DNA of 64,000 bases from Platerodrilus igneus (lineage: Eukaryota; Arthropoda; Insecta; Coleoptera; Lycidae): NCBI GenBank assembly GCA_036346225.1, contig JARFIW010000593.1, positions 806,001 to 870,000 on the forward strand, read 5' to 3'. Positions 4,457 through 61,408 of the stretch are shown here, piece by piece. The notes beneath the pieces were generated by a model. The model made no database searches. It was not told where the DNA came from and worked only from the letters and a program-made list of their open reading frames with translations. Every line of letters starts with the position of its first letter. The first letter of the stretch is position 1. The position numbers were made by a program, and so were the translations under genes.

Positions 4457-4534
4457 CTTGGAGAACGCTCATGTTTACCGTTCCAGCTACTGTCGAATAC
4501 TAAATTGAATACGAAAAAATTGCCCCCTTATGAC

Positions 4535-10795: not shown

Positions 10796-10797
<2 letters not shown>

Positions 10798-12857
10798 CTC
10801 ATATTTAGACCAGGGTAGAAAATTAATGAATTACATAAAATAATTTTAATCACCGTGTATAAGGAATTTTATTAGATAATACGCTTTATTAAAACACCGT
10901 GGAGAATAAAATTCATTCGTTTCAGTAAAATAAGAGATTTAAATCATGTACAAGACGCTTTATATCAAAAGAAACAGTATTAACAAGCTCTACGTGTAAT
11001 GTATTTATTCCGAGGAAAGAAACAAATGGAAATTACGTGCAAAATTTATATTAATTAACCTTATTTTAAGTAACCGGTATTAAACAAAGTGTACAAATAA
11101 TAATTAATATTTAATTTGTATTCGCTAAAATGAAAGGATAGAAGTCAATTTTAATTGGAGTTAATTAAACCATTATTAATAATAAGCATAAAAGTCTGTG
11201 AAAATCCAGGATTATAATACCAGAAAATAAAGCTCTGAGAATTAATATTATGTTTGAACACCTGCGTAGTTTAAAAGCTCATTCTGCGTAAATTTTGCAG
11301 ATAATTAATGGTTACAAAGAATCTTGGAGAAACCGGGGCTTAATATTCACGGGAAGGCGCGATACGGGGTTATTTAACCCAGATAGTCCACATGCACTGA
11401 AATAATCGATAGTAAGGAATATCAATTTGCACCACTAAGAACAGGTTAGAGAAGGAAAGATAATGTGCGTAAGACAAAGACACTAATACTTAAAGGCGTG
11501 ATATGAGCAACGTCACGAGGGTCACGATTGGTTGAAAATAAGATGCACATATGAGAGGTAGAAAAAACAATTTCTGTACAAAATTAATTAGTTATTCTCG
11601 GACATGTTTGCGTGCCGTGTGAGAATTTCTGAGATTTTCAACTGGCGAGTGCAAAATTCGTAAAAACCGACGCACAGGCGACGGAATGGGAACATAGAGT
11701 GACGAAATTCTAGAAACTTGCCGTTTTGGGGAACAGACCGACAGACAGGCTAACTTCTATATATACCGAGGTAAATATAAACAAGCTCTCTTAGATCTTC
11801 GACTTGATTGAACGCGTTATACAGTGCTTTTTAGTTTTCCGGTTTTAATATTAAATAATTTAAACAGTTTGCTCGAATATTATGTGATTTAAAACAGCTT
11901 GTTCTTTACGTGCTACAATGAATGTACGTTAGTGCACTTAGAAAAGAAGATACAAGGTAATAAAGTTTAGTATCACTGTACCAATTGGTAAAAATTTACA
12001 ACGACAAATATATACACAAAAGTAGGCAGTTTTGGCGTATATTGGTGAAAGAAGTATGAAGTTCTTTGTTATTTTTCGGGGTATTAATACTTAAATGGTG
12101 CATAAACGGGTCTGGATCCACAAAACAAGGTTCAGATATACACAGATTAGTTCCGGAAAAGCCCTGAAACAACTTTAAATAAATGGTGATGGAGAAAATT
12201 TTAAAGCGTTGAGAATCAGAAGCCGTAAATATAACCCAGTTGGAATGGTGTGATTAACAAAAGGGACGATGTACATTGAAGCTACGAGTGCAAGTAACCT
12301 TCAGGTAAATTATACTATTTTGTTTGAACTTTGAGATGTTGGTGTGTGTTGAATAACTTTCTAATTTGTTTATTTAAAATGGACAGTAGTGAAATTGTAC
12401 TAACAATAATATTTTAATTTTAAGGTGAAATTTGCTTGTTTAAGTAGAAAGGGTATTTAGTATTGATGTTCTGGATTATGATAAAAATATGGGTATGTCT
12501 TTGAGCTCAATTAGACGAACCTGGTTAATTAACGTAAAGGGGTGGTAGATGCTCCTTTGTACTCTGCATATATTGTTATAGTAATTAGTAGGCATCCTAC
12601 AAGGACTTTAATTCTGGATGCACATTAAAATGAAAATAAATTTAATTTTGAAATTTTCCGATATTAAAATTTATGCTGAATATTAATTTTGAAATTTTAA
12701 TGTATTGTGAATATTGATGTAAATAGAGTTGACGTTGATGTTTGTGGTAGGAATGTGTTTGTTTTTATGTATGAGGATGACAGCTATCTAGAGGAGCAGC
12801 CGAGGCGATTAACAGAAGAAAATCAACAGACCAGGTAATTCAAGAGGTTTCACAGCA
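10796..12857 (+). repeat. 5' LTR of Gypsy-A
   Basis: Begins TACTCATATTTAGACC and ends TTTCACAGCA; the 3' copy has the same ends. A TATA-like CTATATATACC at about 11758-11767 is followed about 30 bp later by sequence around TCTTAGATCTTCGAC, a plausible transcription start. AATAAAG near 11960 could serve polyadenylation. No protein-coding frame was found. It is unusually long for an insect Gypsy LTR. Confidence 0.85.
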
Positions 12858-13001: not shown

Positions 13002-14263
13002 ATGCAGAGAAAAGAGTGGTTAAGGAGTCAAGGAGTGGAAATTGGAAGTGACGATAGTGCATTGTGTGGGAAAAATTCGAAAATGGAAGAAGCTGGAGGC
13101 AGTAGAGATCAGTCGAGGACGGAATCAGGGGATCAAGGAAACGAGATGATGATGCGAATGCTAGAGGAAATGAGATCGAGTAGGGAAGAAGCTAATAGGA
13201 AGTTTGAGGAGATTAGAGAAATGAGTGCTGAATCGAATAGGAAAGTTGACCGAATGAATGAGACATTAACAGGAGTTAGGGAAACCCTAAGTGAGAAAAT
13301 AGATAAGACGAATAAAGAAGTTTCAGAATTTAAAATAGTCTTACCGTGAAACTGGGGGAAGTAGAAAATCGGGTTGATAAAAATGAGCGTGATATTACAG
13401 GTCTTCGACAGGAAATGGGACATTTAAGGTCCGAAGTACGCATTTTTTGTGAAGAAGAGATTAATATAAAAATGACTGAAGTGACAGACTCATGTAGGGA
13501 TCAGTTAGGCAGGGTAGAACGCGAAGTTAGTAGTATTAAATACAACATGTCAAATTTAACGGGGGATGGTCCCAGATTTTCTACAGGTGGAGTATCATTG
13601 GACCAACACATGAAGTTTTATGGCGATAACAGGGTAAATCCACAAATTTTTATTAATAGCGTAAGAAATCTAGTGGGAAATTTATTTGACGAACAGACTA
13701 AACTGAATACGATAAAGGCTTTATTAAAGGACAATGCGGAAGCGTGGTACAATTTAGTAGGACAGGACATAGACACGTATCAGGACTTTGAAAACAAATT
13801 TTTAAAGCACTACTGGAGTGACCACAGACAAGACCAGGTACGAGACGACTTAATCACATGGAAATTTAAGGGAGAATTTTCAGGAAGTAGGGAGCAATAT
13901 GCTATACGCAAGTATAGCATAGCAAAGCAACTGAACCCACCACTGACGGACCGACAAATTATTAAGTATTTATCACGACACTTCGAGGTAGACATAAGAC
14001 AACACGTAGCACTACAGAACATAGTGGACAGAGAAATGTTTCTAGAATACTTGCAGAGGTACGACGACGTAAGTAGTGGACGACCTCGGGATAACAGGGA
14101 AAGACAGATCAACACAGTTAGGTTTGACAATAGACGGGACAACTACGCTAGACGGGGGAATAGTTACGGATACCAGCGACAGAATTGGGAACAGAGACGA
14201 CCATATGTTAGGAGTAATAGTTTAGGAAGGGACCTGCACCGAGACCGGGACCTACCAGAATGA
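13002..14263 (+). pseudogene. Gypsy-A gag polyprotein, one frameshift
   Basis: Two overlapping frames (13002-13349 and 13346-14263) make one gag of about 420 residues split by a single frameshift. The N-terminal ~190 residues are charged and heptad-like (coiled coil). The middle matches the retrotransposon gag capsid region: FYGDNRVNPQIFINSV, KALLKDNAEAWYNLVG, FENKFLKHYWS and KQLNPPLTDRQIIKYLS. The C-terminus is Arg/Asn-rich (RRDNYARRGNSYGYQRQ), probably the RNA-binding part in place of a zinc knuckle. It would form the intracellular particle that packages element RNA. Relatives: 20625-21841 (minus) and 49551-53000 (plus). The shift could be a programmed frame change, but it lies inside gag, so a mutation is more likely. 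Confidence 0.75.
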
Positions 14264-15803: not shown

Positions 15804-17870
15804 TACTCATATTTAGACCAGGGTAGAAAATTAATGAATTACATAAAATAATTTTAATCACCGTGTATAAGGAATTTTATTAGATAATACGCTTTATTAA
15901 AACACCGTGGAGAATAAAAATTCATTCGTTTCAGTAAAAATAAGAGATTTAAATCATGTACAAGACGCTTTATATCAAAAGAAACAGTATTAACAAGCTC
16001 TACGTGTAATGTATTTATTCCGAGGAAAGCAACAAATGGAAATTACGTGCAAAATTTATATTAATTAACCTTATTTTAAGTAACCGGTATTAAACAAAGT
16101 GTACAAATAATAATTAATATTTAATTTGTATTCGTTAAAAATGAAAGGATAGAAGTCAATTTTAATTGGAGTTAATTAAACCATTATTAATAATAAGCAT
16201 AAAAGTCTGTGAAAATCCAGGATTATAATACCAGAAAATAAAGCTCTGAGAATTAATATTATGTTTGAACACCTGCGTAGTTTAAAAAGCTCATTCTGCG
16301 TAAATTTTGCAGATAATTAATGGTTACAAAGAATCTTGGAGAAACCGGGGCTTAATATTCACGGGAAGGCGCGATACGGGGTTATTTAACCCAGATAGTC
16401 CACATGGACTGAAATAATCGATAGTAAGGAATATCAATTTGCACCACTAAGAACAGGTTAGAGAAGGAAAGATAATGTGCGTAAGACAAAGACACTAATA
16501 CTTAAAGGCGTGATATGAGCAACGTCACGAGGGTCACGATTGGTTGAAAATAAGATGCACATATGAAAGGTAGAAACAACAATTTCTGTACAAAATTAAT
16601 TAGTTATTCTCGGACATGTTTGCGTGCCGTGTGAGAATTTCTGAGATTTTCAACTGGCGAGTGCAAAATTCGTAAAAACCGACGCACAGGCGACGGAATG
16701 AGAACATAGAATGACGAAATTCTAGAAACTGGCCGTTTCGGGGAACAGACCGACAGACAGGCTAACTTCTATATATACCGAGGTGAATATAAACAAGCTC
16801 TCTTAGATCTTCGACTTGATTGAACGCGTTATACAGTGCTTTTTAGTTTTCCCGTTTTAATATTAAATAATTTAAACAGTTTGCTCGAATATTATGTGAT
16901 TTAAAACAGCTTGTTCTTTACGTGTTACAATGAATGTACGTTAGTGCACTTAGAAAAGAAGATACAAGGTAATAAAGTTTAGTATCACTGTACCAATTGG
17001 TAAAAATTTACAACGACAAATATATACACAAAAGTAGGCAGTTTTGGCGTATATTGGCGAAAGAAGTATGAAGTTCTTTGTTATTTTTTGGGGGTATTAA
17101 TACTTAAATGGTGCATAAACGGGTCTGGATCCACAAAACAAGGTTCAGATATACACAGATTAGTTCCGGAAAAGCCCTGAAACAACTTTAAATAAATGGT
17201 GATGGAGAAAAATTTTTAAAGCGTTGAGAATCAGAAGCCGTAAATATAACCCAGTTGGAATGGTGTGATTAACAAAAGGGACGATGTATATTGAAGCTAC
17301 GAGTGCAAGTAACCTTCAGGTAAATTATACTATTTTGTTTGAACTTTGAGATGTTGGTGTGTGTTGAATAACTTTCTAATTTGTTTATTTAAAATGAACA
17401 GTAGTGAAATTGTACTAACAATAATATTTTAATTTTAAGGTGAAATTTGCTTGTTTAAGTAGAAAGGGTATTTAGTATTGATGTTCTGGATTATGATAAA
17501 AATATGGGTATGTCTTTGAGCTCAATTAGACGAACCTGGTTAATTAACGTAAAGGGTGGTAGATGCTCCTTTGTACTCTGCATATATTGTTATAGTAATT
17601 AGTAGGCATCCTACAAGGACTTTAATTCTGGATGCACATTAAAATGAACATAAATTTAATTTTGAAATTTTCCGATATTAAAATTTATGCTGAATATTAA
17701 TTTTGAAATTTTAATGTATTGTGAATATTGATGTAAATAGAGTTGACGTTGATGTTTGTGGTAGGAATGTGTTTGTTTTTTATGTATGAGGATGAAAGCT
17801 ATCTAGAGGAGCAGCCGAGGCGATTAACAGAAGAAAATCAACAGACCAGGTAATTCAAGAGGTTTCACAG

Positions 17871-17872
<2 letters not shown>
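15804..17872 (+). repeat. 3' LTR of Gypsy-A
   Basis: Direct copy of 10796-12857 with few substitutions and some one-base length changes in homopolymers. Its last bases TTTCACAGCA run straight into a TA microsatellite. Confidence 0.9.
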
Positions 17873-25689: not shown

Positions 25690-26515
25690 CAACCCGAAAA
25701 AATACGTGAAGATTAGGATAATGACGCCGAATTGGTACGTATTATTAAGTGGAAAAGTAAAGGACGACGACCAGCTTGGGAAGAAATTAGTATTTCAAGT
25801 AGAAGTCTGAAGGCATACTGGGTGCAGTAAGACTCCTTGGTGATTGAAAATAAAATCTTGAAACGACGCATGAAGTGTGAAGATGGCACTGAGAAACGAC
25901 TTGAAGTGATAGTGCCGAGAAGCAGAGTGCCGGAAGTGTTGCAGCACTTGCACGATGGTACCTCCGGAGTGGACTTTGGCGTGAAAAGAGCTCTAGAAAG
26001 AGTAAGAGAAAGATTCTATTGGGTGAACTGCAAAGAAGGTGCGAAGAAATGGTGCCGGAAATGTGAGTTGTGTGCCTCTGGAAATGGCCCGGTCACAAAA
26101 CAGAAAGCCCCAATGATACAGTATAACGTAGGGAATCCTTTTGAGAGGGTGGCCATTGATATAGCTGGTTCGTTTCCTAAATCAGAGAAAGGAAATAAAT
26201 ACATCTTGGTTGCAATGGAATATTTTACCAAATGGCCGGATGCGTACGCCATACCTAACCAAGAAGTCGAATGGTTGCAGATGTACTAGTGAGGGAATTG
26301 TTTTGGTGTTCCGTTCAAAATACACTCCAATCAAGGTCGGAACTACGAATCGGTGTAGTTTCAGAACGTCAGCAAGTATCCTGGAATCAGGAAGACTATA
26401 TCAACGCCACTTCATCCTCAATCGGATGGAATGGTTGAAAAAATGAACAGGACGTTATAAAAGTATTTAGCCAAAGTAGTCTCCGAACATCAACGAGACT
26501 GAGGCCAATATTTAC
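25690..26515 (+). pseudogene. Gypsy-D integrase (copy 1), frameshifted
   Basis: RRPAWEEISISS and KAYW (linker after RNase H), VIENKILKRRMKCEDG, the HHCC zinc domain (HLHDGTSGVDFGVKR, FYWVNCKEG, WCRKCELCASGNGP) and the core start (VAIDIAGSFPKSEKGNKYI) are open to 26289. After that the core continues in other frames to about 26510. One HHCC histidine is replaced (GVDFG where copy 2 has GHFG). Non-functional. Confidence 0.75.
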
Positions 26516-26517
26516 AT

Positions 26518-27085
26518 TTGTTCCTACTGGGGTACCGATTTTCGGTACATGACAGCACAGAATACTCTCTCGCTTGCGTAATGTTAGGACGTGAATTGCG
26601 GCTACCATGTGATCTTCAGTTTGGATTTAAACCTGGAGAAGAGATCGCAGGTAAAGATTACGTTTGTAAGCTTCGCGAAAGATCAAATAGCATTCACGAA
26701 AACGTCCGAAAGAATATCCGGGCGGCAAGCGATCGAATGAAATCACATTATGACACGAGAGCACAATAAGGTGGTTACCAACTTGGAGATTTAGTGTGGT
26801 TGTACAATCTACAAAGAAAGCATGGATTGTCGACAAAATTACAAAGACAATGGGAAAGCTCGTACGAAGTGTTAAAAAGAGTTAATGATGTAGTATACCG
26901 GATCAGAAGATCTCCCCGTGGTAAACCGAAAGTGGTACACTTTGACCGTTTAACATCTTATGCTGGCAACAATCAGGAACACTCGAGTAATGAAAATGGG
27001 GTTCAAAGAATTATTAATCGTTATTCAAATATAGATCTTGAAAGTTTCATGGCGGCATATGGTGGTTCCGCTAAGACGAAATTTG
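26518..27085 (+). pseudogene. Gypsy-D integrase C-terminal region and GPY/F module (copy 1)
   Basis: 26518-26769 encodes MLGRELRLPCDLQFGF and KLRERSNSIHENVRKNIR, the end of the integrase core region. After a stop at 26767, the frame 26794-27354 encodes the chromodomain-like GPY/F stretch (SYEVLKRVNDVVYRIRR, GKPKVVHFDRLTSYAG). This module normally helps target-site choice. The frame then runs without a stop into the macro domain, which is what makes this family unusual. Confidence 0.7.
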
Positions 27086-27650
27086 GCGTTGTTGTTGAAA
27101 AACAGAAAGACCTGTTTAGAGCACCAGAAGGGCATACCCTTACACATTGCGTAGCTCAAGATCTGCGAATGTCAAGAGGAATAGCTGTTGTTTTCAAGAA
27201 AGGGTTTGGATGTGTGGATAAGTTAGTACAACAGCAACCAACTGTAGTAAAAACTTTGGTCTTCAAGATGGAAATTGTTATGTTTACTATCTGGTCACCA
27301 AAAATTCTACATAGCAGATACCTAGTTATGAACATCAATGGGAGCCTTTGTTGAGTCTTAAGGCTCAGATGATGGAAAATGGAGAACGAGACTAGCGGTG
27401 CCCAAGCTAAGCTGTGGATTGAATCGCTTAGATTGGAGAATAGTTCGAAATATGCTAGAAGTAATTTTCCAAGGAATCACCATCCAGGCCCTTGTTTGTT
27501 GTTATCGACTGGTTGCCTACCATGACCAAGCAAAAAGCGTTGACTGTTATTTCCAACGACGTGGTGGATGCACCAAAGGAGATAGCTGCCGATACCATCA
27601 TCAGTCATCAAATTGGCGTCTTGTTTTTACAGTTACAAGACGTAACGGCT
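27086..27650 (+). pseudogene. Macro domain (TARG1/OARD1-like) plus CCCH zinc finger at the end of Gypsy-D pol (copy 1)
   Basis: The N-terminal half of a macro domain is in frame with GPY/F: FRAPEGHTLTHCVAQDL, RGIAVVFKKGFGCVDKL, QQPTVVKTLVFK. After frameshifts near 27280-27390 the second half is in 27398-27727: PKLSCGLNRLDWRIVRNMLE followed by VIFQGITIQALVC. The same frame goes on to VDCYFQRRGGC, TKGDSCRYHH, a C-x7-C-x5-C-x3-H finger. TARG1-type macro domains bind ADP-ribose and remove it from proteins; their GLDRL motif carries a catalytic Asp, which reads Asn here (GLNRL), so this copy looks inactive as well as frameshifted. The reading frame ends at a purine run before the LTR. Confidence 0.7.
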
Positions 27651-27665
27651 TTAAAGAGAGGGCAG

Positions 27666-28172
27666 TGTTACGAACTATTAGGCAACACGCAAGTTGCATA
27701 ACTGAAATGTATTCTACAGAAGTATAGAACATTTGAGCAAACACCAGACTATGAATCATCTAGTTAATTTTAGAGTATATATAAGAACGGTGATGAGTGT
27801 ACATCAGTTAGTCTATATCCAAATGTCGTATATAAATCATATCGTGTATAGTTAGTTGGTTACTACGTTTTGATAGTCCTATAGTAAATATAAATTTGTA
27901 TTATGTACACGTGCATATTGTACCGCCAGCTTGTACATAAATAGACAAAAGGATAATAAATAATTTATAGTAGTGTTAGTGTTAGGAAGACTTATGATTA
28001 AAGATTTAGTTTAAGAAGATATCAGTGTTTGTAAATAGCATTAGTGTGATAGTGCTTCATTGTTAATTGGACTGAAAACATCTATAAATAAGGCATATAC
28101 TGCTAATTAAACTTGTGAATAGTGAATAATAACAACTTTTGTTATTACTTGTTCTAAATCGGTAGCCCGCTA
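27666..28172 (+). repeat. 3' LTR of Gypsy-D copy 1
   Basis: Starts TGTTACGAACTATTAGGC right after a purine run (AAAGAGAGGGCAG) and ends near GGTAGCCCGCTA. It aligns along its length with 54300-53768 (minus). A TATATATAAG box at about 27776 is followed by CATCAGTTAGTC about 25 bp later, a good core-promoter arrangement also kept in the other LTR. Confidence 0.75.
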
Positions 28173-36902: not shown

Positions 36903-38135
36903 TCACTTTTTCCTCCTTTTAATTGGCAAATGTGTAGTATACATATCCAAATTTTGTAAACGATTTTCGTTTGAACTGAGTTTCGTATAGAGTGTAGCTT
37001 TTGGAACATTGTAGATTTCGGATGCTTCTGAACCAGTAATCCATCCTTTGTTTATTTTGTCAAGGGCTTTATTTAAATCCTCTTTAGTATACGATTTAAG
37101 TTGTCTCTTTCTTATTCTGTTAGAAACGTCTGACTTGAAGTCTATGTGTTGATCTTTCGCATCAATATTATCATGTGTAGGTTTATCTTGCACTATTTTA
37201 GTATTTGCCAGAGATTCATTAGACATACCATTCAAATGTTGGCAAGTTGAATTGTTTGATAAACTTTTTTTCATCTCCTTGACAACTTCTTCTAAAATTT
37301 TCATAGCATTTAAAGATATAATTCTTTCTCCGGTTATTTTTATTACGGTGTTTACTTATCAAAATGCAGATGCAGACTATTCCAATTTTACAAATTTGAA
37401 AAATATGTATAAATATTTACCCCCATCTAACTTTGTTGTCGTTCTATTCTATAATTCCTTTTTGTCGAAGTTTAGATATTATAGAGATAATTTCATTTAG
37501 GTCATGCATATCTCGATGGTTGTGATAATCAACAGTATCTAGCAACTGCAGTCTTTCAATCAACCCATGTACATTAAAGTGAATATATGCATCATCTGAA
37601 CTGTGCCCAGACGAGGTGTATTTTTTAATACAACATCCCTTTTTATATACATCGGTATTTTAGTGCCCCGACTATTGCTTTCCTGTGTTGAATCCTCATC
37701 TTCAGAATTTGGGGTGTAATCTATAGAACTTGATTCATTTATTATTTGCTCTGATGGTTTATGACGAGCATTTCCATTATTTTTTGCAGAGTTCATTTCC
37801 TCAATATTAAACTTTTGCTTTTGCATCTTACAACTTCTTTTACAAACTTCTTTATCATCTTTTCCATCTGAGTAGGTAGGTGTTGCTGCACATCTTAGAG
37901 TACTTCCTGTCCCCATTTCCGCAGTTTGTAAATTAGTTGTTTGTATATCAGAGATGTAACTGTCTACACTTTTATTTCTTTTACTCTGCGATAGTATGAG
38001 ATGGTCTCGCAATGTCGACTTTGGAATCCTAAACTTCTTACTAGCAGCGTACATTGTTGCAACACCTCGTTTAACCTCATTAAGAGCTTCTTGCAAACAT
38101 TCCTTGGTATACGTTTTTCTAGAAATCATTTTCAA
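36903..38135 (-). pseudogene. Gene or element with two pipsqueak-type HTH domains
   Basis: The first segment (38135-37560) begins MKMISRKTYTKECLQEALNE followed by an HTH ending FRIPKSTLRDHL, a clear HTH_psq domain in the first ~45 residues, then a polar acidic region. Near an A-run at about 37630 the frame appears to shift, after which LIERLQLLDTVDYHNHRDMH and NEIISIISKLRQKGIIE continue to a stop near 37455. The second segment (37304-36903) carries another HTH_psq (KSYTKEDLNKALDKINKGWI, YNVPKATLYTKLS) before a basic C-terminus. Pipsqueak HTH domains bind DNA and occur in insect transcription factors and some transposases. It could be one spliced or frameshifted gene, or part of the polymerase element to its right, from which it is transcribed divergently. 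Confidence 0.5.
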
Positions 38136-38985
38136 GTTACAATGCTTTACGGTTCAATATCCGGGATAAACTAAAGTAATAATATTGTAGCTAGTGAATA
38201 TAAAACCGATCGAGTTTATCATAATTCGATCTATATCTGTAGTTGAAGTACAACAATTTAGAAACGTATAAGAGAATAAACTGTAATATGCAGGAATATA
38301 GTGACAGAAATTTCTCCAAAAAACTATGGTTTAAAATTTAAACATCGCTTCGGAATTCGACAGACATCTATTATTTGACTATTATCCCAATTTGTATTAA
38401 ATTTCCTCAAACAGAAAGTAAGGTGCATTTCTAGTAATCTAATTACTTGGTTCAAGATCGCATTTAATTACGCGCGTCACTTACATTCTTGAAATTCCAT
38501 GTTGGTGAAACGTATGACGTAGAATTTTTTTATTTAAAGTAAATGCGGGCTCCTCTCTAATTAAATGGACAAGCCTGCGCAGACGAGTGCATAGAAATAA
38601 TAATAACTATAAAATATTGTATAAATATTTTTTTTAAAATTGCTGTATTATCGAGTTAAATCTAAATAAAAATGTAGAGGTGTTTTGCTGTTAGGTTTTT
38701 AAATATTAAAACACTATGCGGGTCCTTGTTGGAGCTAATTTTAAAAGACGTGATAACTAAGTTCGATTCCCCAGGAAAATTCTATACTAATTTGATAGGT
38801 TACACGACGGAGTTATATTAAAAATACTGCTAAGAGTAATTTTGTATAATAATTCTAAAAATGGTGTTGGTGGTTAAATACATACAGGTAAAACCCACTA
38901 TAAAACAATTATACGCGTCACTTTTCCAGTCAAGATTTGCATATAACGCCAATTAACATAATAAGGAGCTGCGCACGCTCGACCA
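38136..38985. other. Divergent intergenic region, no gene identified
   Basis: Lies between the minus-strand HTH_psq locus and the plus-strand polymerase-element gene. AT-rich, without a conserved frame. Confidence 0.5.
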
Positions 38986-45000: not shown

Positions 45001-45699
45001 CCTAGGTCAACTTAAGTAAAAGTTTTAGAACTGCCGTTTTGTTATATGTTTATAAGAAATAACTTACATATGATAGTGTTATTCTAAATTACATCACGCA
45101 CATGGAATGATTCCACAATAGGTGTTCAAAATGACCACCGCATCTGCAAGTTTGTGGTTGGTATAATTTCCAGTTATCAAATTTTTAAATCAGAATTCAC
45201 TAAACTACCGAGAAATAAAATTATTGCATTACCGACAATCAATTACAATTAAGTCAAAATATTGCGTTTAAGTGTATTACCTAAACAGATAATTCAACAC
45301 AAGTAACAAAATCAAACATCAGAGATGATACACTAACAAATCATCTAGCTCTAGTTACAAGCTATTTAATAAAAAAAGCACATTCAACTTAAAGTAGGTT
45401 ATCATTTGGCTGCAAACAGCTGAATTGCAAAAAACTTAAGACTACGAGGTCAGAAACTCAATGCAGTCGACAAAATCAGCATCATGGAATATTATTTTTT
45501 GTAACATCCGATGTTCAAGAAAATTTTAAAATTATTTTGGTAGCAGCTAAAGTGCATGGAGTTATTTTGTTTGGCAGCTAAAATGCAGCAACTAAATTGG
45601 TCGACTCTAAAGGATGGTGTTACTGTGCATTTGATTCGTGACCTAGTTCACATTGCAGTGGTTTTAAAACATTTTTTATACTTTTTTGTGTGTCAACTA
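42075..45699. other. No gene identified
   Basis: AT-rich DNA. Frames at 42658-42975, 43829-44071 and 44378-44615 (all minus) have no recognisable domain, and the last two overlap in different frames. The only local compositional change is a GC-richer stretch at about 44385-44450. Confidence 0.55.
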
Positions 45700-46652
45700 A
45701 TAGACAGGCAGGGGTAGAAATAGTGTTAGGTAAAAGATTAGGCCGTAAAGTTAAAGAGTACTTATAATTTAGTGATAGAATAGTTATGGTTAGATTGAGT
45801 ACGAAACCCACAGACACTGTTTTAGTACAGGTTTACATGCCAACAACTCAGTACGAAGATGAGGAAGTAGAAAAGGTATACAAGGATATAAATAGTATAG
45901 CGAGAAAAGTAAAGAGAGATGAGAATTTAATAGTTATGGGCGATTTTAATGCGTCAGTGAAAGAAGGTAGTGAGGAAAAAATGGTACGAAAATTTGGGTG
46001 TGGTAGACAAAATGATAGAGGAAAAAGGTTAGTTGAGTTTTACTAAGAACATGGATTAGTAACTGTAGACAACCTATTCGAACAACATGTTAGAAGAAGA
46101 TATACCTGGAAACCGCCAGGTGATAGCGCTAGATACCAAATAGATTATATTTTGGTTAAACAAAGATTTAGAAACCAAGTTAAAGACTGTCGTAGTTATC
46201 CAAATGCTGACATAGATAGCGATCATAACTTAGTTAAAACGAAGTGTATTCTAAAATTCAAAAAATTGAGAAAGGCTAAAAGAGAGGAATGGAATCTAGG
46301 TAAGCTTAATGACAGTGAGATAAAAGAAGAATGTAAACAAAGTTTAAATAATAAGATCAAAGAAATAGCTATAGGAGGGAACGTAGAAAATAGATGGAAA
46401 GAAATAAAAAGGGCTGTACATGATATAGCAAAACAGACTATAGATAGGAAAAAAGTAGAAGCGAGAAAACCCCGGGTAACAAAGGAAATATTAGATTTAA
46501 TAGAGCACAGAAGAAAGCTTAAACTTTTCAGAGAATTGGATGGTAAAAGTAAGCAAAAATATAATAGAGTTAGAAATAAGAAGTACATGAATGTAGAAGA
46601 GATAGAAATAAATGGATGGAGGAGAATTGTAAGGGAATACAAGATGATTTGA
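45700..46652 (+). pseudogene. RTE apurinic-type endonuclease domain and linker
   Basis: 45786-46046 encodes LSTKPTDTVLVQVYMPTTQY and LIVMGDFNASV, the latter a core APE-type endonuclease motif. After an in-frame stop (46044-46046) come YTWKPPG and YQIDYILV (46100-46160) and ADIDSDHNLV (about 46210), whose SDH is the catalytic His motif. The frame 46152-46652 then continues into the Lys-rich linker before RT. The domain nicks target DNA for target-primed reverse transcription. Confidence 0.75.
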
Positions 46653-53619: not shown

Positions 53620-53767
53620 ATGGAGAAATTGATTGAAGGTGAGAAAAATGTAGATGAGGTTATCAGTGACAAATTAAGTGCTTGTGCTGTGAATCATCTA
53701 ATTTTAATAAAAAGAAGCGATGTTAGTAAGAAATTAGGTTTAAATGTGAAAATTATGAAGCGCATAA
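53620..53767 (+). pseudogene. Gypsy-C RT start, left of the Gypsy-D insertion
   Basis: CAVNHLILIKRSDVSKKLGL followed by NVKIMKRI corresponds to the Gypsy RT region PxxLVKKKDGxxRLCxDxRxLN. It is cut at 53767 by the Gypsy-D LTR. 53020-53620 left of it is a decayed gag-pol linker rich in Glu/Asn codons. Confidence 0.5.
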
Positions 53768-54300
53768 TGCAGCGGGCTACTATTAACGCGTTTCACCAAT
53801 TTAAAACAAGTAAAAACAAGTCTTTATTACTCACTGTTCACAAGTCTAATCAACAGTATATGCCTTATTTATAAATGTTTTCAGACTAATTAGCAATGAA
53901 ACACTATCACACTAATACTATTTACAAGCACGAATATCTTCTTGAACTAAATTCTTAACCATAGGTCTATTAACAACACTGACACTACTATTTATTTATT
54001 ACACTTTTGTCTATTTATGTATTCTACAAGCTGGCGTTACAATATACACGTTCACATAACACAAATTTATATTTACTCTTAGAGTTCTAAAACGTTACTA
54101 ATTGACTTTACACGATATAATTTATATTGGACATTTAGATATAGACTAACTCTGTACTTCATCATCGGTCTTATATATACCCTGAATTAAATGGATGATT
54201 CATACTCCGGTATATGCTAGAAGGTTCGAGGCCTCTGTAGTATATACATTGCTTACGGCGCTCGTGTGTTTGACGGGTTGCCTAATAGTAGCTCGTAACA
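53768..54300 (-). repeat. 3' LTR of Gypsy-D copy 2
   Basis: 533 bp, TGTTACGAGC...GCTGCA on the minus strand. TATATATAAG (about 54181-54172) lies upstream of ACAGAGTTAGTC, the same promoter layout as at 27776. It runs directly on from the CCCH-coding sequence through a purine run. Confidence 0.8.
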
Positions 54301-54546
54301 CTGCCCCCTCTTTAAAACTGTTACGTCTTGTAACTGTAAATACATTTTGACGCCAATTTGTTGGCTGATGACGGTATCGGCAGCTATTTCCTCTGGTGCA
54401 GCCACCACGTCGTTGAAAAAAACAGTCAACACTCTTTTCTTGGTCTTGGTAGACAACCGGTTGATAACAATAAACAAGGATCTGGACGTAGGTTTCCATC
54501 ATCTGAGCTTTAAGATTCAGCAAAGCCTATCATAGATGTCCATAAC
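54300..54546 (-). pseudogene. End of Gypsy-D pol: macro-domain tail fragment and CCCH zinc finger (copy 2)
   Basis: The frame 54523-54200 reads LNLKAQMMETYVQILVYCY, then VDCFFQRRGGC, TRGNSCRYRH, the same C-x7-C-x5-C-x3-H finger as in copy 1. The GxxRLAVPKLGCGLDRL part of the macro domain is deleted here between AQMME and TYVQILV. Two copies conserving the finger despite many neutral changes support this reading frame over the alternative frame that is also open. CCCH fingers usually bind RNA; a role in element RNA handling is inference. Coding ends inside the LTR. Confidence 0.65.
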
Positions 54547-54552
54547 TAGGTC

Positions 54553-55803
54553 TTTCATCATCATTTTGTTTTCGACCTTATTTAAGGTCGGTTTGACGCA
54601 GCTCTAACTTCTTTTCTATTCTGTGCTAATCTAAAAAGTTCTACATACCCCTCACAACCTACGTTTCTAATAATTTGACTAAAATAGCTTAGTCTAAGTC
54701 TTCCTATACTCTTCTATCTTTTTCTTATCTACCTGGCTCTATATAGATATTAGTAACCTGATGGTTGTTAAAAAACTCCAACATGTTTACATAATTCCCA
54801 TTTATAAGGAAATGAAATATTACCTGGTTATCCCCTCCAAAAAAGGAAAAGTGTTAAATTATATGTTATGGTAAGGCTTAAGCAACGAATCGCTACCAAC
54901 ATGTCAGACCGCTAACTAATTGTGACATTTAGTTAACTGATTTTTATTTATTTATTTTTTGTTTTGTTTTCGAACCTACTTAAGGTCGGTTTGACGCAGC
55001 TCTAAATTCTTTTCTATTCTGAGCAGTCAGCCCCTGGATAACTATGACAGTTTTTAACTTGGTTTCTAAATCTTTGTTTAACTAAAATATTATCTATTTA
55101 GTATCTAGTCCTATCATCTGGCGCTTTCCAGGTATATCTTCTCCTAACATGTTGTACGAATAGGGTGTTTACAGTTACTAATCTATGTTCTTGGCAAACC
55201 TCAACTAATCTTTCTCCTCTATCATTTCGTCTGCCATACCCAAATTTTCCTACCATTTTTCCCTCACTACCTTCTCCTACTGACGCATTAAAATCGCCCA
55301 TAACTATTAGATTCTCATCTCCCTTTACTTTTCTCACTATACCATTTATATCCCCGTATACCTTTTCTACTTCCACATCCTCGTATTGAGTTGTAGGCAT
55401 GTAAACCTGTACTAAAACAGTGTCTGTGGGTTTTGTACTCAATTTAACCATAATTATTCTATCACTAAATTGTAAGTACTCTTCAACTTTACGTCCTAAT
55501 CTTTTACCTAGCAATATTCCTACCCCTGCTTGTCCATTAGTTGAAGAAGTTGTAATTATTCTACAATTATCTTTCCAAAAGTCATTACTATCTGGCCATC
55601 TCACGTCACTAATACCTAATATGTCCAGCTTCCCTTTTCTCAATTCGACTAATAAATTCGTTAACTTATGTACTCTAAGTCATGACCTTACATTCCAAGT
55701 CCCTATCACTAAATCGAACTGTTGTTTTAAATTCCTATAATGACGAGCCCCAAGTTCCCCCTCCTGGAGATCCGAATGAGGGGGTATTTTACCTCCGGAC
55801 AAG
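54553..55803 (-). mobile_element. RTE-type LINE inserted in Gypsy-D, target duplication ACTAGGTC
   Basis: Flanked by ACTAGGTC at 54545-54552 and 55804-55811. The 3' tail on the minus strand is AAAATGATGATGAAA, an RTE-type tail. The interior holds the leader and endonuclease (55740-55098) followed directly by 3' sequence, with RT deleted. A second 3'-end-like block (GGTCGGTTTGACGCAGCTCT at both about 54584 and 54985) shows an internal duplication. Confidence 0.8.
55098..55740 (-). pseudogene. RTE endonuclease domain
   Basis: Open from 55643 to 55098: LDILGISDVRWPDS, STNGQAGVGILLGKRLGRK, TDTVLVQVYMPTTQYED, LIVMGDFNASVGEG, then RRYTWKAPDDRTRY. GTWNVRS lies just upstream, after which a stop closes the frame. 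These are APE-type endonuclease motifs of RTE/BovB elements. The SDH histidine motif and the whole RT are deleted. Confidence 0.8.
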
Positions 55804-55811
55804 ACTAGGTC

Positions 55812-55995
55812 CCTGCCATGAAGAATTTTTGGTGACCAGTTAGTAACCATAACGTTTTTTATCCTGAAAAACCAAAGCTTTTCCTACAGTTGGCTGCTGT
55901 TGTACTAATTCATTCTTTAGAAAATTACTTTTAGCATATTTCGAACTATTTTCCTATCTAAGCGATGCAGTTCACAGCCTAGCTTGGGTACCGCT
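55812..55995 (-). repeat. Duplicated piece of the Gypsy-D macro-domain coding sequence
   Basis: The segment encoding LVQQQPTVGKALVFRIKNVM repeats, with divergence, the QQQPTVVKTLVFRMKIVM segment at about 56165-56095. Between them lies LGCELHRLDRKIVRNMLKVI, the second half of the macro domain. The order second-half then repeated first-half is out of register, so two diverged macro copies were joined here before or during the RTE insertion. Confidence 0.6.
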
Positions 55996-56034
55996 AGTCT
56001 CGTTCTCCATTTTTCATCATCTGAGCCTTAAGAC

Positions 56035-56796
56035 TCAGTAAAGGCTCCCATAGATGTTCATAACTAGGTCTTTGCTATCTATAATTTTTAGTGACCAGAT
56101 AGTAAACATAACAATTTTCATCCTGAAGACCAAGGTTTTTACTACAGTTGGTTGCTGTTGTACTAATTTATCCACACATCCAAACTTTTTCTTGAAAACA
56201 ACAGCTATTCCTCTTGCGATTTCCAGATCTTGAGCTACGCAATGTGCAAGGGAATACTTTTCTGGTGCTCTAAACAGAGTTTGCTGTTTTTCAACAACAA
56301 CGCCAAATTTCGCCTTAGCGGAACCACCATACGCCGCCATAAAACTCTCAAAATCTACATTTGGCTCGTGATTAATAACTCGGCGAACACCATTCTCATT
56401 ATGCGAGTCTTCCTGGTTGTTGCCAGCATAGGACGTTAAACGGTCAAAGTGTACCATTTTAGGTTTACCACGGGGACATCTTCTGATCCGGTACACTACA
56501 TTATTAATTCTTTTTAACACTTTGTACGGGCCTTCCTTTTGTCTTTGTAATTTTGGCGACAATCCACGTTTTCCTTGTAGACTGTACAACCACACCAAAT
56601 CTCCAGGTTGGTAACCACCTTCTTGTGCTCTCATGTCATATTGTGATTTCATTCGATCGCTTGCCGCCTGTATATCCTTTCGGATGTTTTCGTGAATGCT
56701 ATTTGATCTTTCACGAAGCTTACAAACGTAATCTTCAGCTGCGATCTCTTCTTCAGGTTTATCCAAACTGAAAATCACATGGTAGCCGCAATTCAC
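56035..56796 (-). CDS. Gypsy-D integrase C-terminal region, GPY/F module and first half of macro domain (copy 2)
   Basis: A 253-codon open frame. Residues ~10-60: end of integrase region (KLRERSNSIHENIRKDIQA, QYDMRAQEGGYQPGDLVWLY). Residues ~75-120: GPY/F module (GPYKVLKRINNVVYRIRR, MVHFDRLTSYAG). From ~165: macro domain (FRAPEKYSLAHCVAQDLEIA, RGIAVVFKKKFGCVDKLV, TVVKTLVFRMKIVMF). Macro and GPY/F are in one uninterrupted frame, showing that the macro domain is part of this pol and not a neighbouring gene. The N-terminal half of the macro fold supplies part of the ADP-ribose pocket; AHCVAQDL-x5-GIAVxFKKKFG is the most TARG1-like stretch. The second half follows in a shifted frame. The frame with the integrase core (56885) is broken near 56840. 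Confidence 0.75.
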   Translation of the reverse strand: MNCGYHVIFSLDKPEEEIAAEDYVCKLRERSNSIHENIRKDIQAASDRMKSQYDMRAQEGGYQPGDLVWLYSLQGKRGLSPKLQRQKEGPYKVLKRINNVVYRIRRCPRGKPKMVHFDRLTSYAGNNQEDSHNENGVRRVINHEPNVDFESFMAAYGGSAKAKFGVVVEKQQTLFRAPEKYSLAHCVAQDLEIARGIAVVFKKKFGCVDKLVQQQPTVVKTLVFRMKIVMFTIWSLKIIDSKDLVMNIYGSLY

Positions 56797-56884
56797 GCCC
56801 TAACATCACGCAAGCGGGAGAGTATCCCGTGTTGTCATGTACCGAAGATCGGTACGCCAGTAGGAACAAATGTAAATATTGGTT

Positions 56885-57568
56885 CTAGTCTCGTTGATGT
56901 TCAGAGACAACTTTGGCTAGGTACTTTCCTAACATCCTGTTCATTCTTTCAACCATTCCATCCGATTGGGGATGAAGTGGCGTGGTTCTAGTCTTTCTGA
57001 TTCTCAGATGCTTGCAGACGTTTTGAAACAACGCTGATTCGAAGTTCCGACCTTCATCGGAGTGTAATTCCAACAGAACTCCAAAGCGACGAAACAACTC
57101 CCTCACTAGTACATCTGCAACCGTCTCGGCTTCTTGGTTAGGTATACTATACGCCTCCGGCCATTTGGTAAAATAATCCATTGCAACCAAGATGTATTTA
57201 TTTCCTTTCTCAGATTCAGGAAACGGACCGGCTATATCAATGGCCACCCTCTCAAAAGGATTCCCCACGTTATACTGTCCCATTGCGGCTTTCCGTTTTG
57301 TAACCGGGCCATTTCCAGAGGCACATAACTCACATTTCCGGCACCACTCCTTCACATCTTCTTTGCAGTTCACCCAATAAAATCTATCTCTCACTCTTTC
57401 GAGAGTTCTTTTCACGCCAAAGTGCCCTCGGGAAATACCGTCGTGCAAGTGCTGCAACATTTCCGGCATTCTGCTTCTCGGCACTATCACTTGAACTCGT
57501 CTCTCAGTGCCATCTTCACATTCCAAGCGTCGTTTCAACATTCTATTTTCAATCACCAAGGGTCCCAC
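56885..57568 (-). CDS. Gypsy-D integrase zinc domain and catalytic core (copy 2)
   Basis: 227 codons, open. HHCC zinc domain at about residues 38-85 (HLHDGISRGHFGVKRTLE, FYWVNCKEDVKEWCRKCELC). Core: AIDIAGPFPESEKGNKYILV (first Asp), LLELHSDEGRNFES (second Asp) and HPQSDGMVERMNR (Glu), the D-D-35-E set, all present. It inserts element cDNA into chromosomes. The frame is also open a little upstream into the RNase H linker (RRPAWEEISILS, KAYWAQW, at 57600-57560 in a neighbouring frame). This is the best-preserved enzyme in the window. Expression would depend on gag-pol context, which is broken. Confidence 0.8.
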   Translation of the reverse strand: MGPLVIENRMLKRRLECEDGTERRVQVIVPRSRMPEMLQHLHDGISRGHFGVKRTLERVRDRFYWVNCKEDVKEWCRKCELCASGNGPVTKRKAAMGQYNVGNPFERVAIDIAGPFPESEKGNKYILVAMDYFTKWPEAYSIPNQEAETVADVLVRELFRRFGVLLELHSDEGRNFESALFQNVCKHLRIRKTRTTPLHPQSDGMVERMNRMLGKYLAKVVSEHQRD

Positions 57569-57701
57569 TGTGCCCAGTATGCCTTCAGGCTCCTACTTAA
57601 AATACTAATTTCTTCCCAAGCTGGTCGTTGTCCTCTACTCTTCCACTCGATAATACGTCCCAAATCTGCGACGTCCTCATGGTCTTCTCGTTGTAACGTA
57701 T

Positions 57702-59649: not shown

Positions 59650-59830
59650 TTCGGGTCGCCAAGTATCATCGGTTACCGTCATCCTATGAATGATACTTAT
59701 TTTCTCTTCCATCTTGGAGCAAGGATTGCAGTCTGTCGGACAAGGTCTCCTTGACAGAGCGTCTGCATTCCGATGACTAGTTCCTACGCGATGTTCTGTG
59801 TCAAAATCATACTCTTGCTGTTAAACCGGT
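59650..59830 (-). pseudogene. End of Gypsy-D RNase H joined to gag
   Basis: The minus strand reads EHRVGTSHRNADALSRRPC in one frame, the hallmark end of Gypsy RNase H, only about 15 codons after the gag zinc knuckle. Protease, RT and most of RNase H are therefore deleted between the two. Confidence 0.7.
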
Positions 59831-60989
59831 TGTTTTTTAGTTGAGTACAGCGGCTCTGTATATGGCCAACTTCACCGCAGTTCCAACATCGCAGACACAA
59901 TCTCTGCGGTCGTTGTCTTTCCAGCTTTTTCGCCTTTTGTTTTTCAAACACGCGGTTGATTATTTCTTCTATGCTGTTCTGCGATTAACCAGATTCTTCT
60001 AAGGCAGACCGACCGTTGTGACTCATCCTGTGTGATGTCTGCTTAGCTGCTTCAAATTCAAGCGCATGAGCGCGTCATCCAACATTTATGGCCTTGCTAA
60101 TCTTAGCGCTTGCGGTATTTCGCCATCTTTAACGCCATCTACGAACAGCCAGTTGTTCCAGGAAGCTATCTGGTGCCGTTGGGTATGCCAATCTAACTAA
60201 TCTAGCAATGTCAGCTTCGAATTCTTGCAGGCTTTTATTTGTGTTTTGCGAGCGGTTCTAAACTTGTGCATGGTAAACGTGTTGAAGGTGAGCGTCTCCA
60301 TATCTCATCTCAAGCTTCGATGTTAAGAGGCCGTAATCATTCTACTAACGATTGAGATTCGTTTGCAGGATGTTAAGCGCTTCCCCCCGTAGGGCCACTA
60401 TTAAAGAGATAGCCTTCTCTTTGTTACACCAATTGTTGGCTATTTCAGCGGCTTCAAATTGTTTCATATATGTGGGCCAAGGCGTTTTACCATCGAATGT
60501 GAGTGGTTTCGCTCTAAATTTTGACAGTATTGACTCGCTTTCTTTCATGCTTTTTATTTCTGGGATATTCTGATTTACAACTTGGTTTACTAATTCAAGT
60601 GGCCGCGTTGTTAGTGAAATCACTTGTTCTTGCAGCCTCATCACATCTTCTTCTATTTTTACGAATTTACTTTCCAACTTTTGCTCAACTGTTTTTACTT
60701 GTTTAGTGAAATCTTCTTTCAATGCAATGGAGCTTTCCATTAATCTTTGCTCTAACGTGGCTGTACTTTCATTCAACTTTTCTTCCATTTTGGCAGCATT
60801 TTCACTAAACTTTACTTCCATTTTCGCAGCATTTTCACTCAACTTTTCTTCTATTTTCTCAGCATTTTCACCAAGTGTCACTTCTAATTTAGCCGACCTC
60901 TCTTCCATACCGGATTTAAAATCCTTAAGTAAATTCATTAAAGTTTCTGCGCCCATTTTACTTTGGCTTCTTGTAACAGGCATATACAA
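59831..60989 (-). pseudogene. Gypsy-D gag with CCHC zinc knuckle, broken
   Basis: 60989-60345 is open (214 codons): MPVTRSQSKMGAETL start, then repeated KLSENAAKMEEK-type heptads (residues ~45-85; coiled coil, internal ~14-residue repeats), then the capsid start KPLTFDGKTPWPTYMKQFEA. After a frameshift it continues as YGDAHLQHVYHAQV, LQEFEADIARLVRLAYPTAP and ALEFEAAKQTS, and ends with the knuckle CWNCGEVGHIQSRC (about 59900-59855). Gag forms the particle and the knuckle binds element RNA. The long plus-strand frame 60706-61008 is its shadow. Confidence 0.75.
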
Positions 60990-61061
60990 ACTACTGAAAT
61001 GTCTTTAGACTTGTGCGTTTTCTTTTAAATTAATCACTATATACCCAACACCTGACATCAG

Positions 61062-61196
61062 TGTAGCGGGCTAGTATTAACGCGTTTCACCAATTTAAAA
61101 CAAGTAATAACAAGTCTTTATTACTCACTGTGTACAAGTCTAATTAACAATATATGCCTTATTTATAAATGTTTTCAGTCCAATTAACGAAGCTGT

Positions 61197-61235
<39 letters not shown>

Positions 61236-61404
61236 CATATATATATATATAAATATACTATATATATATATATATATATATATACCTTGAATTAAATGGA
61301 TTATTCATACTCCGGTATATGCTAGAAGGTTCGAGACCTCTGTAGTATATGCATTGCTACGGCGCTTGTGTGTTTGACGGGTTGCCTAATAGTAGCTCGT
61401 ATCA
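61062..61404 (-). repeat. 5' LTR of Gypsy-D copy 2, internally altered
   Basis: TGATACGAGC...GCTACA on the minus strand. It aligns with the 3' LTR at both ends, but the middle is deleted and replaced by an expanded TA tract (61200-61285), making it 343 bp instead of 533. The tract starts near the TATATATAAG promoter of the intact LTR, so this LTR has lost its normal start region. Confidence 0.75.
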
Positions 61405-61408
61405 ATAA

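What the first reader, a model, noticed from the sequence alone, without database searches (positions are those of the whole stretch)
27086..27650. Gypsy retrotransposon pol ending in a TARG1-like macro domain and a CCCH zinc finger
Downstream of integrase and GPY/F the coding sequence continues into a macro domain (THCVAQDL, GIAVVFKKGFG, PKLSCGLNRLDW) and then a C-x7-C-x5-C-x3-H finger, ending at the polypurine tract and LTR. The same order is recoverable from copy 2 (56330 down to 54300), and there the GPY/F-macro join is in one open frame. TARG1/OARD1-type macro domains remove ADP-ribose from proteins. An element carrying one could counter ADP-ribosylation-based host defence or PARP activity at integration breaks. 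That role is inference; the architecture is visible.
Basis: partly seen in the sequence, partly recalled or inferred. Interest (0 to 1): 0.88.

Follow-up and report, generated by a model that had tools for sequence, protein, structure and literature searches.

The report
Retrotransposon carrying an ADP-ribose eraser
A jumping gene found in beetle genomes has a borrowed enzyme domain at the end of its integrase that normally strips ADP-ribose tags from proteins and nucleic acids; selection has kept the domain intact while the element copied itself, so it probably helps the element, perhaps against its host.

Summary
Confirmed and extended. Both window copies of this Ty3/Gypsy element carry, between the integrase GPY/F domain and the LTR, a TARG1 (OARD1)-type macro domain and a CCCH finger. 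A macro profile built without the window passes only on four pieces of these elements among 2,023 six-frame pieces. The two copies are old and dead: macro frame-broken, catalytic Asp replaced. The family is not: 30 of 108 integrase relatives hold the macro; the named ones are beetles. All 28 macro-bearing relatives in a GPY/F tree and window copy 2 share one clade (100/98). A modelled relative matches TARG1-ADP-ribose at 0.8 A. In 60 high-scoring copies of the window's own genome the catalytic Lys is kept in 58 and the Asp in 59. Variants shared by two or more copies give omega 0.26 in macro (p 1.4e-7) and 0.24 in CCCH, against 0.79 and 1.72 for singletons and 1.18 in the tail. So the domain worked during replication, most likely as an ADP-ribosyl hydrolase; its target is not shown. 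My paper searches listed no such element; fish retroviruses with macro ORFs are the nearest precedent.

The parts
25831..26289 (+). copy 1 integrase piece (homologous to the H2C2 and first part of the core in copy 2)
   Evidence: open frame; 90% DNA identity to the copy 2 integrase over 25840-26260; not itself run against Pfam
26770..27090 (+). copy 1 GPY/F (Integrase_p58_C) and linker
   Evidence: Pfam 4.2e-12; one open frame with the macro N half
27091..27253 (+). copy 1 macro domain, N half
   Evidence: profile positions 8-63, E 1.7e-13 for the frame; PDB search with both copies
27264..27389 (+). copy 1 macro domain, middle (frame changed, one in-frame stop, both shared with copy 2)
   Evidence: three-frame reading; no indels between the copies; pieces of the middle only reach E 0.4 (copy 2)
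27386..27502 (+). copy 1 macro domain, C half, with Asn in place of the catalytic Asp
   Evidence: profile positions 106-144, E 4.4e-9; TARG1 E 9e-4; residue
27542..27601 (+). copy 1 CCCH zinc finger, same open frame as the macro C half
   Evidence: PF00642 21.8 bits over its cut-off 20.5; CPSF4 fingers
27653..27665 (+). polypurine tract (by eye)
   Evidence: read; aligned with copy 2
27666..28172 (+). copy 1 3' LTR (end approximate)
   Evidence: alignment of three LTRs; start and end motifs
61062..61404 (-). copy 2 5' LTR (internally altered)
   Evidence: 4-bp TSD TTAT at 61405-61408
60345..61004 (-). copy 2 gag-like coiled-coil open frame (by position)
   Evidence: only a weak coiled-coil Pfam match below its cut-off (PF01442)
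59784..59984 (-). copy 2 frame with a CCHC-like knuckle (by eye)
   Evidence: read; no tool test
56885..57592 (-). copy 2 integrase: H2C2 zinc finger and rve core
   Evidence: PF17921 6.5e-19, PF00665 4.5e-15
56035..56799 (-). copy 2 GPY/F, linker and macro N half in one open frame
   Evidence: PF22938 6.8e-13; TARG1 2.1e-9; profile 1.6e-13
55920..56027 (-). copy 2 macro C half (His at the catalytic Asp)
   Evidence: profile 2.2e-5; residue
55804..55913 (-). copy 2 partial second macro stretch
   Evidence: self-comparison (matches 56063-56171 and copy 1 27223-27326)
55098..55679 (-). endonuclease-like open frame of a non-LTR element inserted in the copy 2 macro region
   Evidence: 90% DNA match to 45693-46211; kind recalled, no family test
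54368..54424 (-). copy 2 CCCH finger
   Evidence: zf-CCCH 0.0018, below the cut-off, residues 35-53 of frame 54526-54200; alignment to copy 1
53768..54300 (-). copy 2 3' LTR
   Evidence: 4-bp TSD TTAT at 53764-53767

Best explanation
This is a Ty3/Gypsy LTR retrotransposon lineage whose pol was extended, probably once, behind the integrase GPY/F domain by a TARG1-type macro domain and a CCCH finger. Shown: the architecture; its conservation in a clade whose named members are beetles; the TARG1 fold and the Lys/Asp catalytic pair in most copies that were seen; purifying selection on both added domains during amplification in this genome. Inferred: the macro is an active ADP-ribosyl hydrolase, carried by the integrase and by an RNA-binding finger into the element's nucleoprotein. 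There it removes ADP-ribose that host PARP-type enzymes put on the element's proteins, RNA or cDNA ends, and so keeps copying and integration going. The two window copies are old, dead members.
For: Architecture. Insertion with a 4-bp target-site duplication. Relatives: 30 of 108 GPY/F relatives carry the macro, some only in part; of 55 element-type proteins the catalytic Lys is present in 44 of 47 that cover it and the Asp in 38 of 43. Relative P0007 against TARG1: 5e-31. Model: TARG1-ADP-ribose complex, rmsd 0.8, TM 0.96 by target, macro part at high confidence. One origin: the 26 element macros chosen for the tree are one side of a branch in 91% of bootstraps (94/50); on the GPY/F tree all 28 macro-bearing relatives and window copy 2 fall in one clade, 100/98. 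Own genome: frame open through the macro in 51 of 60 and through CCCH in 40 of 60; Lys 58/60, Asp 59/60. Selection, shared variants: omega 0.26 (macro), 0.26 (macro middle and C half, outside the search query, p 2e-5), 0.24 (CCCH); singletons 0.79, 0.89, 1.72; tail 1.18; wrong frames 0.96-4.7. Known chemistry: K84/D125 is TARG1's catalytic dyad and mutating D125 abolishes deacetylation (PMC5413906, passages); TARG1 clears ADP-ribose from proteins and from DNA and RNA ends (PMC7050489, PMC6582358, passages).
Against: No activity, binding or localisation was measured, and no substrate is known. A supported subclade (P0013, P0019, P0119, P0020, P0134; 98/90) has lost parts of the catalytic pair while keeping the domain, so in some lineages the fold may do something else. 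The two window copies show no clear constraint in the macro (omega 1.69 N half, 0.24 middle, 1.28 C half, few changes). The 60 copies are high-scoring ones out of 17,445 candidates, so the open fraction is biased upwards; the bias shows in GPY/F singletons (omega 0.41, p 4e-4). For CCCH, variants shared by four or more copies alone are not significant (8 N, 7 S, omega 0.40, p 0.07). The linker also looks constrained (shared omega 0.30, p 0.014).
Confidence: 0.58

Rival explanations
1. The macro acts at the integration site: fused to the integrase C-terminus, where chromoviruses carry a chromodomain (abstract of PMC3605345 in the listing), it strips ADP-ribose laid by PARPs on the nicked target or cDNA ends, so that strand transfer or gap repair proceeds.
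For: Position directly behind GPY/F in window and relatives; TARG1 is reported to clear ADP-ribose from phosphates at DNA breaks (PMC6582358 passages).
Against: Two relatives that look internally deleted keep gag-like or protease sequence next to the macro without integrase (P0116 by eye, P0127 by its precomputed Pfam), which suggests the domain can matter without integrase. Cleavage and location of the domain are unknown.
Confidence: 0.22
2. The macro is a reader, not an eraser: it binds ADP-ribosylated chromatin or proteins and steers integration.
For: Same position as chromodomain targeting modules; a subclade has lost catalytic residues but keeps the domain; the ALC1-like class holds readers as well as erasers (PMC7050489 passages).
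Against: The Lys/Asp pair is kept in 58 and 59 of 60 sampled own-genome copies and in 44/47 and 38/43 relatives, which binding alone would not obviously require.
Confidence: 0.13
3. Chance capture: a host gene piece carried as a passenger with no function.
For: Both window copies are broken in the macro and show no clear constraint there; frame-broken copies exist elsewhere in the genome (class A, 0 of 20 complete in the starting frame).
Against: Conservation across the clade and purifying selection on shared variants in macro and CCCH. Broken copies are scattered on the tree, not a lineage of their own.
Confidence: 0.04
4. Retrotransposon pieces beside an unrelated host OARD1 gene, or an assembly join.
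For: NCBI gene models call some of these proteins OARD1-like (P0130, P0134).
Against: The macro lies between GPY/F and LTR inside an insertion with a target-site duplication, in two copies here, in the 149 scored places of the genome, where the match runs from GPY/F into the macro, and in many beetle proteins. P0130 itself carries the integrase domain.
Confidence: 0.01

Closest known systems
Ty3/Gypsy (Metaviridae) LTR retrotransposons with GPY/F integrase
   Same: LTRs with a 4-bp target-site duplication, polypurine tract by eye, H2C2-rve-GPY/F integrase
   Different: pol continues into a macro domain and a CCCH finger; 78 of 108 GPY/F relatives show no macro, though 50 of those end within 40 residues of GPY/F
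TARG1 / OARD1 / C6orf130 (ALC1-like ADP-ribosyl hydrolase)
   Same: sequence (5e-31), fold (0.8 A), Lys/Asp pair in most copies seen
   Different: TARG1 is a free host enzyme of about 150 residues; here it is a fusion at the end of a retrotransposon polyprotein, with a CCCH finger behind it
Fish epsilon-like endogenous retroviruses with macro-domain ORFs (Basta et al. 2009, cited in PMC4977317; one passage seen, the original not held)
   Same: an LTR retroelement that carries a macro-domain protein
   Different: vertebrate retroviruses with additional ORFs; macro class and place not known to me; not compared here
Macro domains of alphaviruses and coronaviruses
   Same: a virus genome carrying an ADP-ribose eraser; alphavirus macro chains match the model (TM by target 0.64-0.69)
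   Different: MACROD-like (abstract of PMC6582358), not TARG1-like; RNA viruses
DarG antitoxin macro domain
   Same: ALC1-like fold (TM 0.79-0.82)
   Different: 22-24% identity and, as reported, without the catalytic acid (PMC7050489 passages)
Insect retrotransposons with virus-like helicase domains (PMC5563155, passages)
   Same: an accessory enzyme acquired and kept by insect retroelements
   Different: another enzyme, mostly in non-LTR elements

Membership tests
Ty3/Gypsy LTR retrotransposon | two LTRs with target-site duplication | tested here: met
   copy 2 LTRs 61404-61062 and 54300-53768, TTAT on both sides
Ty3/Gypsy LTR retrotransposon | integrase with H2C2, rve core and GPY/F module in that order | tested here: met
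   (copy 2, two frames 85 bases apart)
Ty3/Gypsy LTR retrotransposon | reverse transcriptase upstream of integrase; RT phylogeny | not tested
   copy 1 is cut short upstream and copy 2 shows no RT frame; not sought in other copies, to stay with the 3' piece
Ty3/Gypsy LTR retrotransposon | gag with CCHC knuckle | tested here: inconclusive
   coiled-coil ORF and a CCHC-like motif by eye; no gag family hit for the ORF tested
TARG1 / ALC1-like hydrolase | nearest solved structure is TARG1, full domain aligned | tested here: met
   relative P0007: 5e-31 over 132 residues; Foldseek 0.8 A. Window pieces: halves only
TARG1 / ALC1-like hydrolase | catalytic Lys84/Asp125 equivalents in the family | tested here: met
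   58/60 and 59/60 own-genome copies; 44/47 and 38/43 relatives; one subclade is an exception
TARG1 / ALC1-like hydrolase | catalytic Asp in the two window copies | tested here: not met
   Asn and His
TARG1 / ALC1-like hydrolase | ADP-ribosyl hydrolase activity | not testable with these tools
   needs purified protein
CCCH zinc finger | C-x7-C-x5-C-x3-H ligands | tested here: met
   PF00642 over its cut-off in copy 1, below it in copy 2; each ligand in 57-59 of 60 copies; motif in 30 of 38 relatives with a complete macro and a long enough tail
Errantivirus / endogenous retrovirus | env gene between integrase and 3' LTR | tested here: not met
   no env family in the frames of that interval. Weak gp41 matches (0.0046, 0.0025, no stretch passing by itself) lie in the last 45 residues of the copy 2 frame, mostly past the frame change; I take them as chance
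Fish ERVs with macro ORFs | same macro class and same place in the genome | not tested
   Basta 2009 was looked for by a recalled DOI and is not held

The most novel reading that the evidence does not exclude
An LTR retrotransposon lineage carries its own TARG1-type ADP-ribosyl hydrolase, fused to integrase and joined to an RNA-binding finger, as a counter-defence against a PARP-based restriction of transposons in insects that has not been described. One subclade has turned the domain into a pseudo-enzyme, as if it were shifting targets in an arms race.
Probability: 0.4. Interest if true: 0.92.

Novelty: new variant of a known kind. Interest (0 to 1): 0.8.

Why it matters
Macro domains of RNA viruses are a main line of evidence that ADP-ribosylation is antiviral (abstracts of PMC5156301 and PMC6521996 in the listing). 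A retrotransposon that keeps such an enzyme under selection suggests that ADP-ribosylation may also limit retrotransposition, in insects where no such defence is known to me, and it offers a testable reagent. It also warns annotators: 'OARD1-like' gene models in beetle genomes (P0130, P0134) are pieces of this transposon family.

Tried and rejected
Rejected: (1) 'Two subfamilies, one with a broken macro': first read from the two alignment classes; the tree mixes them (12 changes), and the 'broken' class was picked up because my query itself ends in a changed frame. (2) 'No PF01661 hit means no macro': intact relatives also stay under its cut-off. (3) 'The Asp was lost in the family': it is present in 79 of 80 sampled own-genome copies. 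(4) The two-copy dN/dS is too small to decide. (5) Weak gp41 matches: taken as chance, not followed.

Led nowhere: (single-sequence protein search, none of 4 candidates), viral-contig scans 14, 16 and 20 (16: 12 matches, chance), genome-contig scan 54 (26 stretches, none confirmed). One search gave 41 loci; L048 and L053 are one chance match; 34 distinct proteins of 100 residues or more made the profile (7 of 41 dropped as duplicate, short or chance). An own-genome search with GPY/F alone, which would have sampled copies without regard to the macro, did not complete. Their lists show no Gypsy element with a macro domain, but I saw at most 25 rows of each (39, 46 and 73 had 1,042, 3,609 and 2,927 papers), passages of ten papers, and the library lacks most subscription journals and repeat databases.

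Full report
WHAT IS THERE. Two copies of one Ty3/Gypsy element lie in the window. Copy 2 runs from 61404 down to 53768 with recognisable LTRs and the 4-bp target-site duplication TTAT on both sides, so it looks like a true insertion with the macro sequence inside. Copy 1 is cut short upstream and ends in a 3' LTR from 27666. Integrase H2C2 and rve were found by Pfam in copy 2, GPY/F in both. Behind GPY/F both copies go on, in the same open frame, into the N half of a macro domain (26770-27354 and 56799-56035). In copy 1 the C half and a CCCH finger share a further frame, 27362-27727, which stays open past the polypurine tract into the LTR.

IS IT REAL. The N half (copy 2) matches human TARG1 at 2.1e-9 and the C half (copy 1) at 9e-4, each at the right place of the chain. 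The middle part alone reaches only E 0.4 (copy 2). PF01661 is not reached, but intact relatives do not reach its cut-off either. Weak gp41 matches (0.0046; 0.0025) lie at the frame-changed end of the copy 2 frame, and I take them as chance.

STATE OF THE TWO COPIES. They are old: 10.4% and 8.9% from the nearest of 60 sampled copies and 10.5% from each other, sister on the tree (100/97). In both the macro changes frame in the middle at the same place, with a shared stop, and no indel separates the copies there. The catalytic Asp is Asn in one and His in the other. Copy 2 also holds a partial second macro stretch and an endonuclease-like insertion. Copies with an open macro frame exist elsewhere in the genome.

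THE FAMILY. A profile of the two pieces finds 108 proteins among 685 candidates; 30 of them carry a macro stretch at E under 1e-3, many of them complete, for example P0007 with 5e-31 to TARG1 over the whole domain. A second search with macro and CCCH of 11 members finds 83 proteins. Every organism named in that list is a beetle: Aromia, Molorchus, Exocentrus, Callosobruchus, Acanthoscelides, Leptinotarsa, Gonioctena, Diabrotica, Brassicogethes, Pyrocoelia, Aquatica (four lineages looked up: Cerambycidae, Chrysomelidae, Nitidulidae, Lampyridae; the others recalled). Of 176 proteins seen in all, 93 hold a macro and 55 of these have GPY/F or CCCH beside it; the catalytic Lys is present in 44 of 47 that cover it and the Asp in 38 of 43. 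CCCH follows in 30 of 38 with complete macro and tail.

ONE CAPTURE. In a tree of 63 macro domains that I chose, the 26 element macros are one side of a branch (94/50; 91% of bootstraps). In a GPY/F tree of 101 rows all 28 macro-bearing relatives and window copy 2 fall in one clade of 38 (100/98). Nine rows in that clade show no macro. P0173 has its start but is cut. P0034 and P0113 are neighbouring gene models by locus tag, and P0077 and P0112 share a contig length, so these look like split models. P0035 has a 95-residue tail unlike a macro; the others have tails of 45 or less. Loss in single copies is not excluded. Of the 78 relatives without macro, 50 end within 40 residues of GPY/F and so say nothing; 13 have 100 residues or more behind it, without a macro. 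The termite, fly and snail proteins in the list are among the short ones; the cockroach ones are long. The source of the domain within animals is not resolved. A subclade of five has lost parts of the catalytic pair (98/90).

SELECTION. The window's genome (2.71 Gb, unnamed) gave 149 scored matches out of 17,445 first-look candidates; neither is a copy number, and the longest open frame reported is 1,653 residues. I fetched the 1.6-kb 3' parts of 60 matches in rank order that align to query residue 226-228 (those beginning before residue 13 left out) and of 20 matches of the other class. In the 60, the frame is open through the macro in 51 and through CCCH in 40; Lys is kept in 58, Asp in 59, the four zinc ligands in 57-59. 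Variants seen in one copy only (mostly decay after insertion) are near neutral in macro (70 N, 34 S, 8 stops, omega 0.79) and CCCH (34 N, 7 S, 4 stops, 1.72), though not in GPY/F (33 N, 30 S, 0.41, p 4e-4), where picking high-scoring copies biases them. Variants shared by two or more copies, mostly passed on by transposition, are constrained: macro 25 N, 37 S, no stop, 0.26 (p 1.4e-7); its middle and C half, which lie outside the matched query and so free of that bias, 16 N, 24 S, 0.26 (p 2e-5); CCCH 10 N, 15 S, 0.24 (p 3.6e-4; with four or more copies 8 N, 7 S, 0.40, p 0.07); GPY/F 9 N, 27 S, 0.12; linker 8 N, 9 S, 0.30 (p 0.014). The tail that overlaps the polypurine tract and LTR is neutral (42 N, 15 S, 1.18). 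In the two wrong frames the same counts give 0.96-4.7. Variants were counted per site, not per event on a tree, so the p values are approximate. Across 15 complete relatives mean pairwise identity is GPY/F 0.72, macro 0.56, CCCH 0.56, linker 0.43, tail 0.39.

STRUCTURE. The AlphaFold model of P0007 with 24 rows is confident only in the macro part (block means 85-97 for residues 211-350; whole-chain mean 69.6, pTM 0.46). Its best PDB match is the TARG1-ADP-ribose complex 4j5s (rmsd 0.8, TM 0.96 by target, 40% identity), then DarG (0.79-0.82), designed hydrolases and alphavirus macros (0.64-0.69). Finger and GPY/F are not reliable in this model.

HOW IT MOST LIKELY WORKS. Shown: a TARG1-type domain with its catalytic pair, kept by selection during replication. 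Established for TARG1: K84 and D125 form the catalytic dyad (PMC5413906, passages; PMC7050489, passages, writes Glu125); it removes ADP-ribose from Glu/Asp, and from DNA and RNA ends (PMC7050489; PMC6582358, passages). Inferred: carried by integrase and the finger, it cleans the element's own nucleoprotein of host-laid ADP-ribose. Whether the target is protein, RNA, cDNA ends or the integration site is open. In mammals, mono-ADP-ribosylation of KAP1 by SIRT6 silences L1 (PMC4695847, passages), an example of the kind of pathway it could oppose.

NOVELTY. Ten paper searches listed no Gypsy element with a macro domain; the nearest is one sentence on fish epsilon-like endogenous retroviruses with macro ORFs (PMC4977317, passage). 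The library lacks most subscription journals and repeat databases, and long lists were seen only in part. I rate it a new variant of a known kind: a known class of retrotransposon with an enzyme not reported there, to my knowledge.

Noticed in passing
window 10796-12857 and 15804-17872: Direct repeats of about 2.07 kb, 98.7% identical, around a gag-like frame (13334-14263, Retrotrans_gag 0.0013, below the cut-off): probably a young LTR element with 2-kb LTRs and a short internal part.
   Followed up: no
proteins P0130 (Leptinotarsa) and P0134 (Diabrotica): Public gene models named 'ADP-ribose glycohydrolase OARD1-like' belong to this retrotransposon family: P0130 carries the integrase C-terminal domain, P0134 groups with element macros.
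   Followed up: partly
proteins P0116 and P0127: On short contigs, gag-like (P0116, by eye) or retropepsin (P0127) sequence runs into linker and macro without RT or integrase: derivatives that look internally deleted and keep the eraser part.
   Followed up: partly
proteins P0013, P0019, P0119, P0020, P0134: A supported subclade keeps the domain but lost parts of the catalytic Lys/Asp pair: possible pseudo-enzymes.
   Followed up: partly
loci L013-L053: 34 distinct TARG1-type macro proteins in viral contigs (hosts not tested); the catalytic Asp is present in the 33 that span it (three read by eye where the script's pattern matched elsewhere). The C half of the window macro is 56% identical to L035 over 41 residues.
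   Followed up: partly
window 1098-2522: Two frames that look by eye like coiled-coil and membrane-anchored parts of an insect retroelement env; the second has no Pfam hit over its cut-off, the first was not tested.
   Followed up: no
window 3491-4468 (-) and 37560-38153 (-): Long frames: 3491-4057 without a Pfam family (4058-4468 not tested), and 37560-38153 with a psq helix-turn-helix match of 0.0039, below its cut-off.
   Followed up: no
window 45693-46211 and 55026-55544: A 519-base stretch, 90% identical, of what look like non-LTR endonuclease frames; the second lies in the macro region of copy 2.
   Followed up: no
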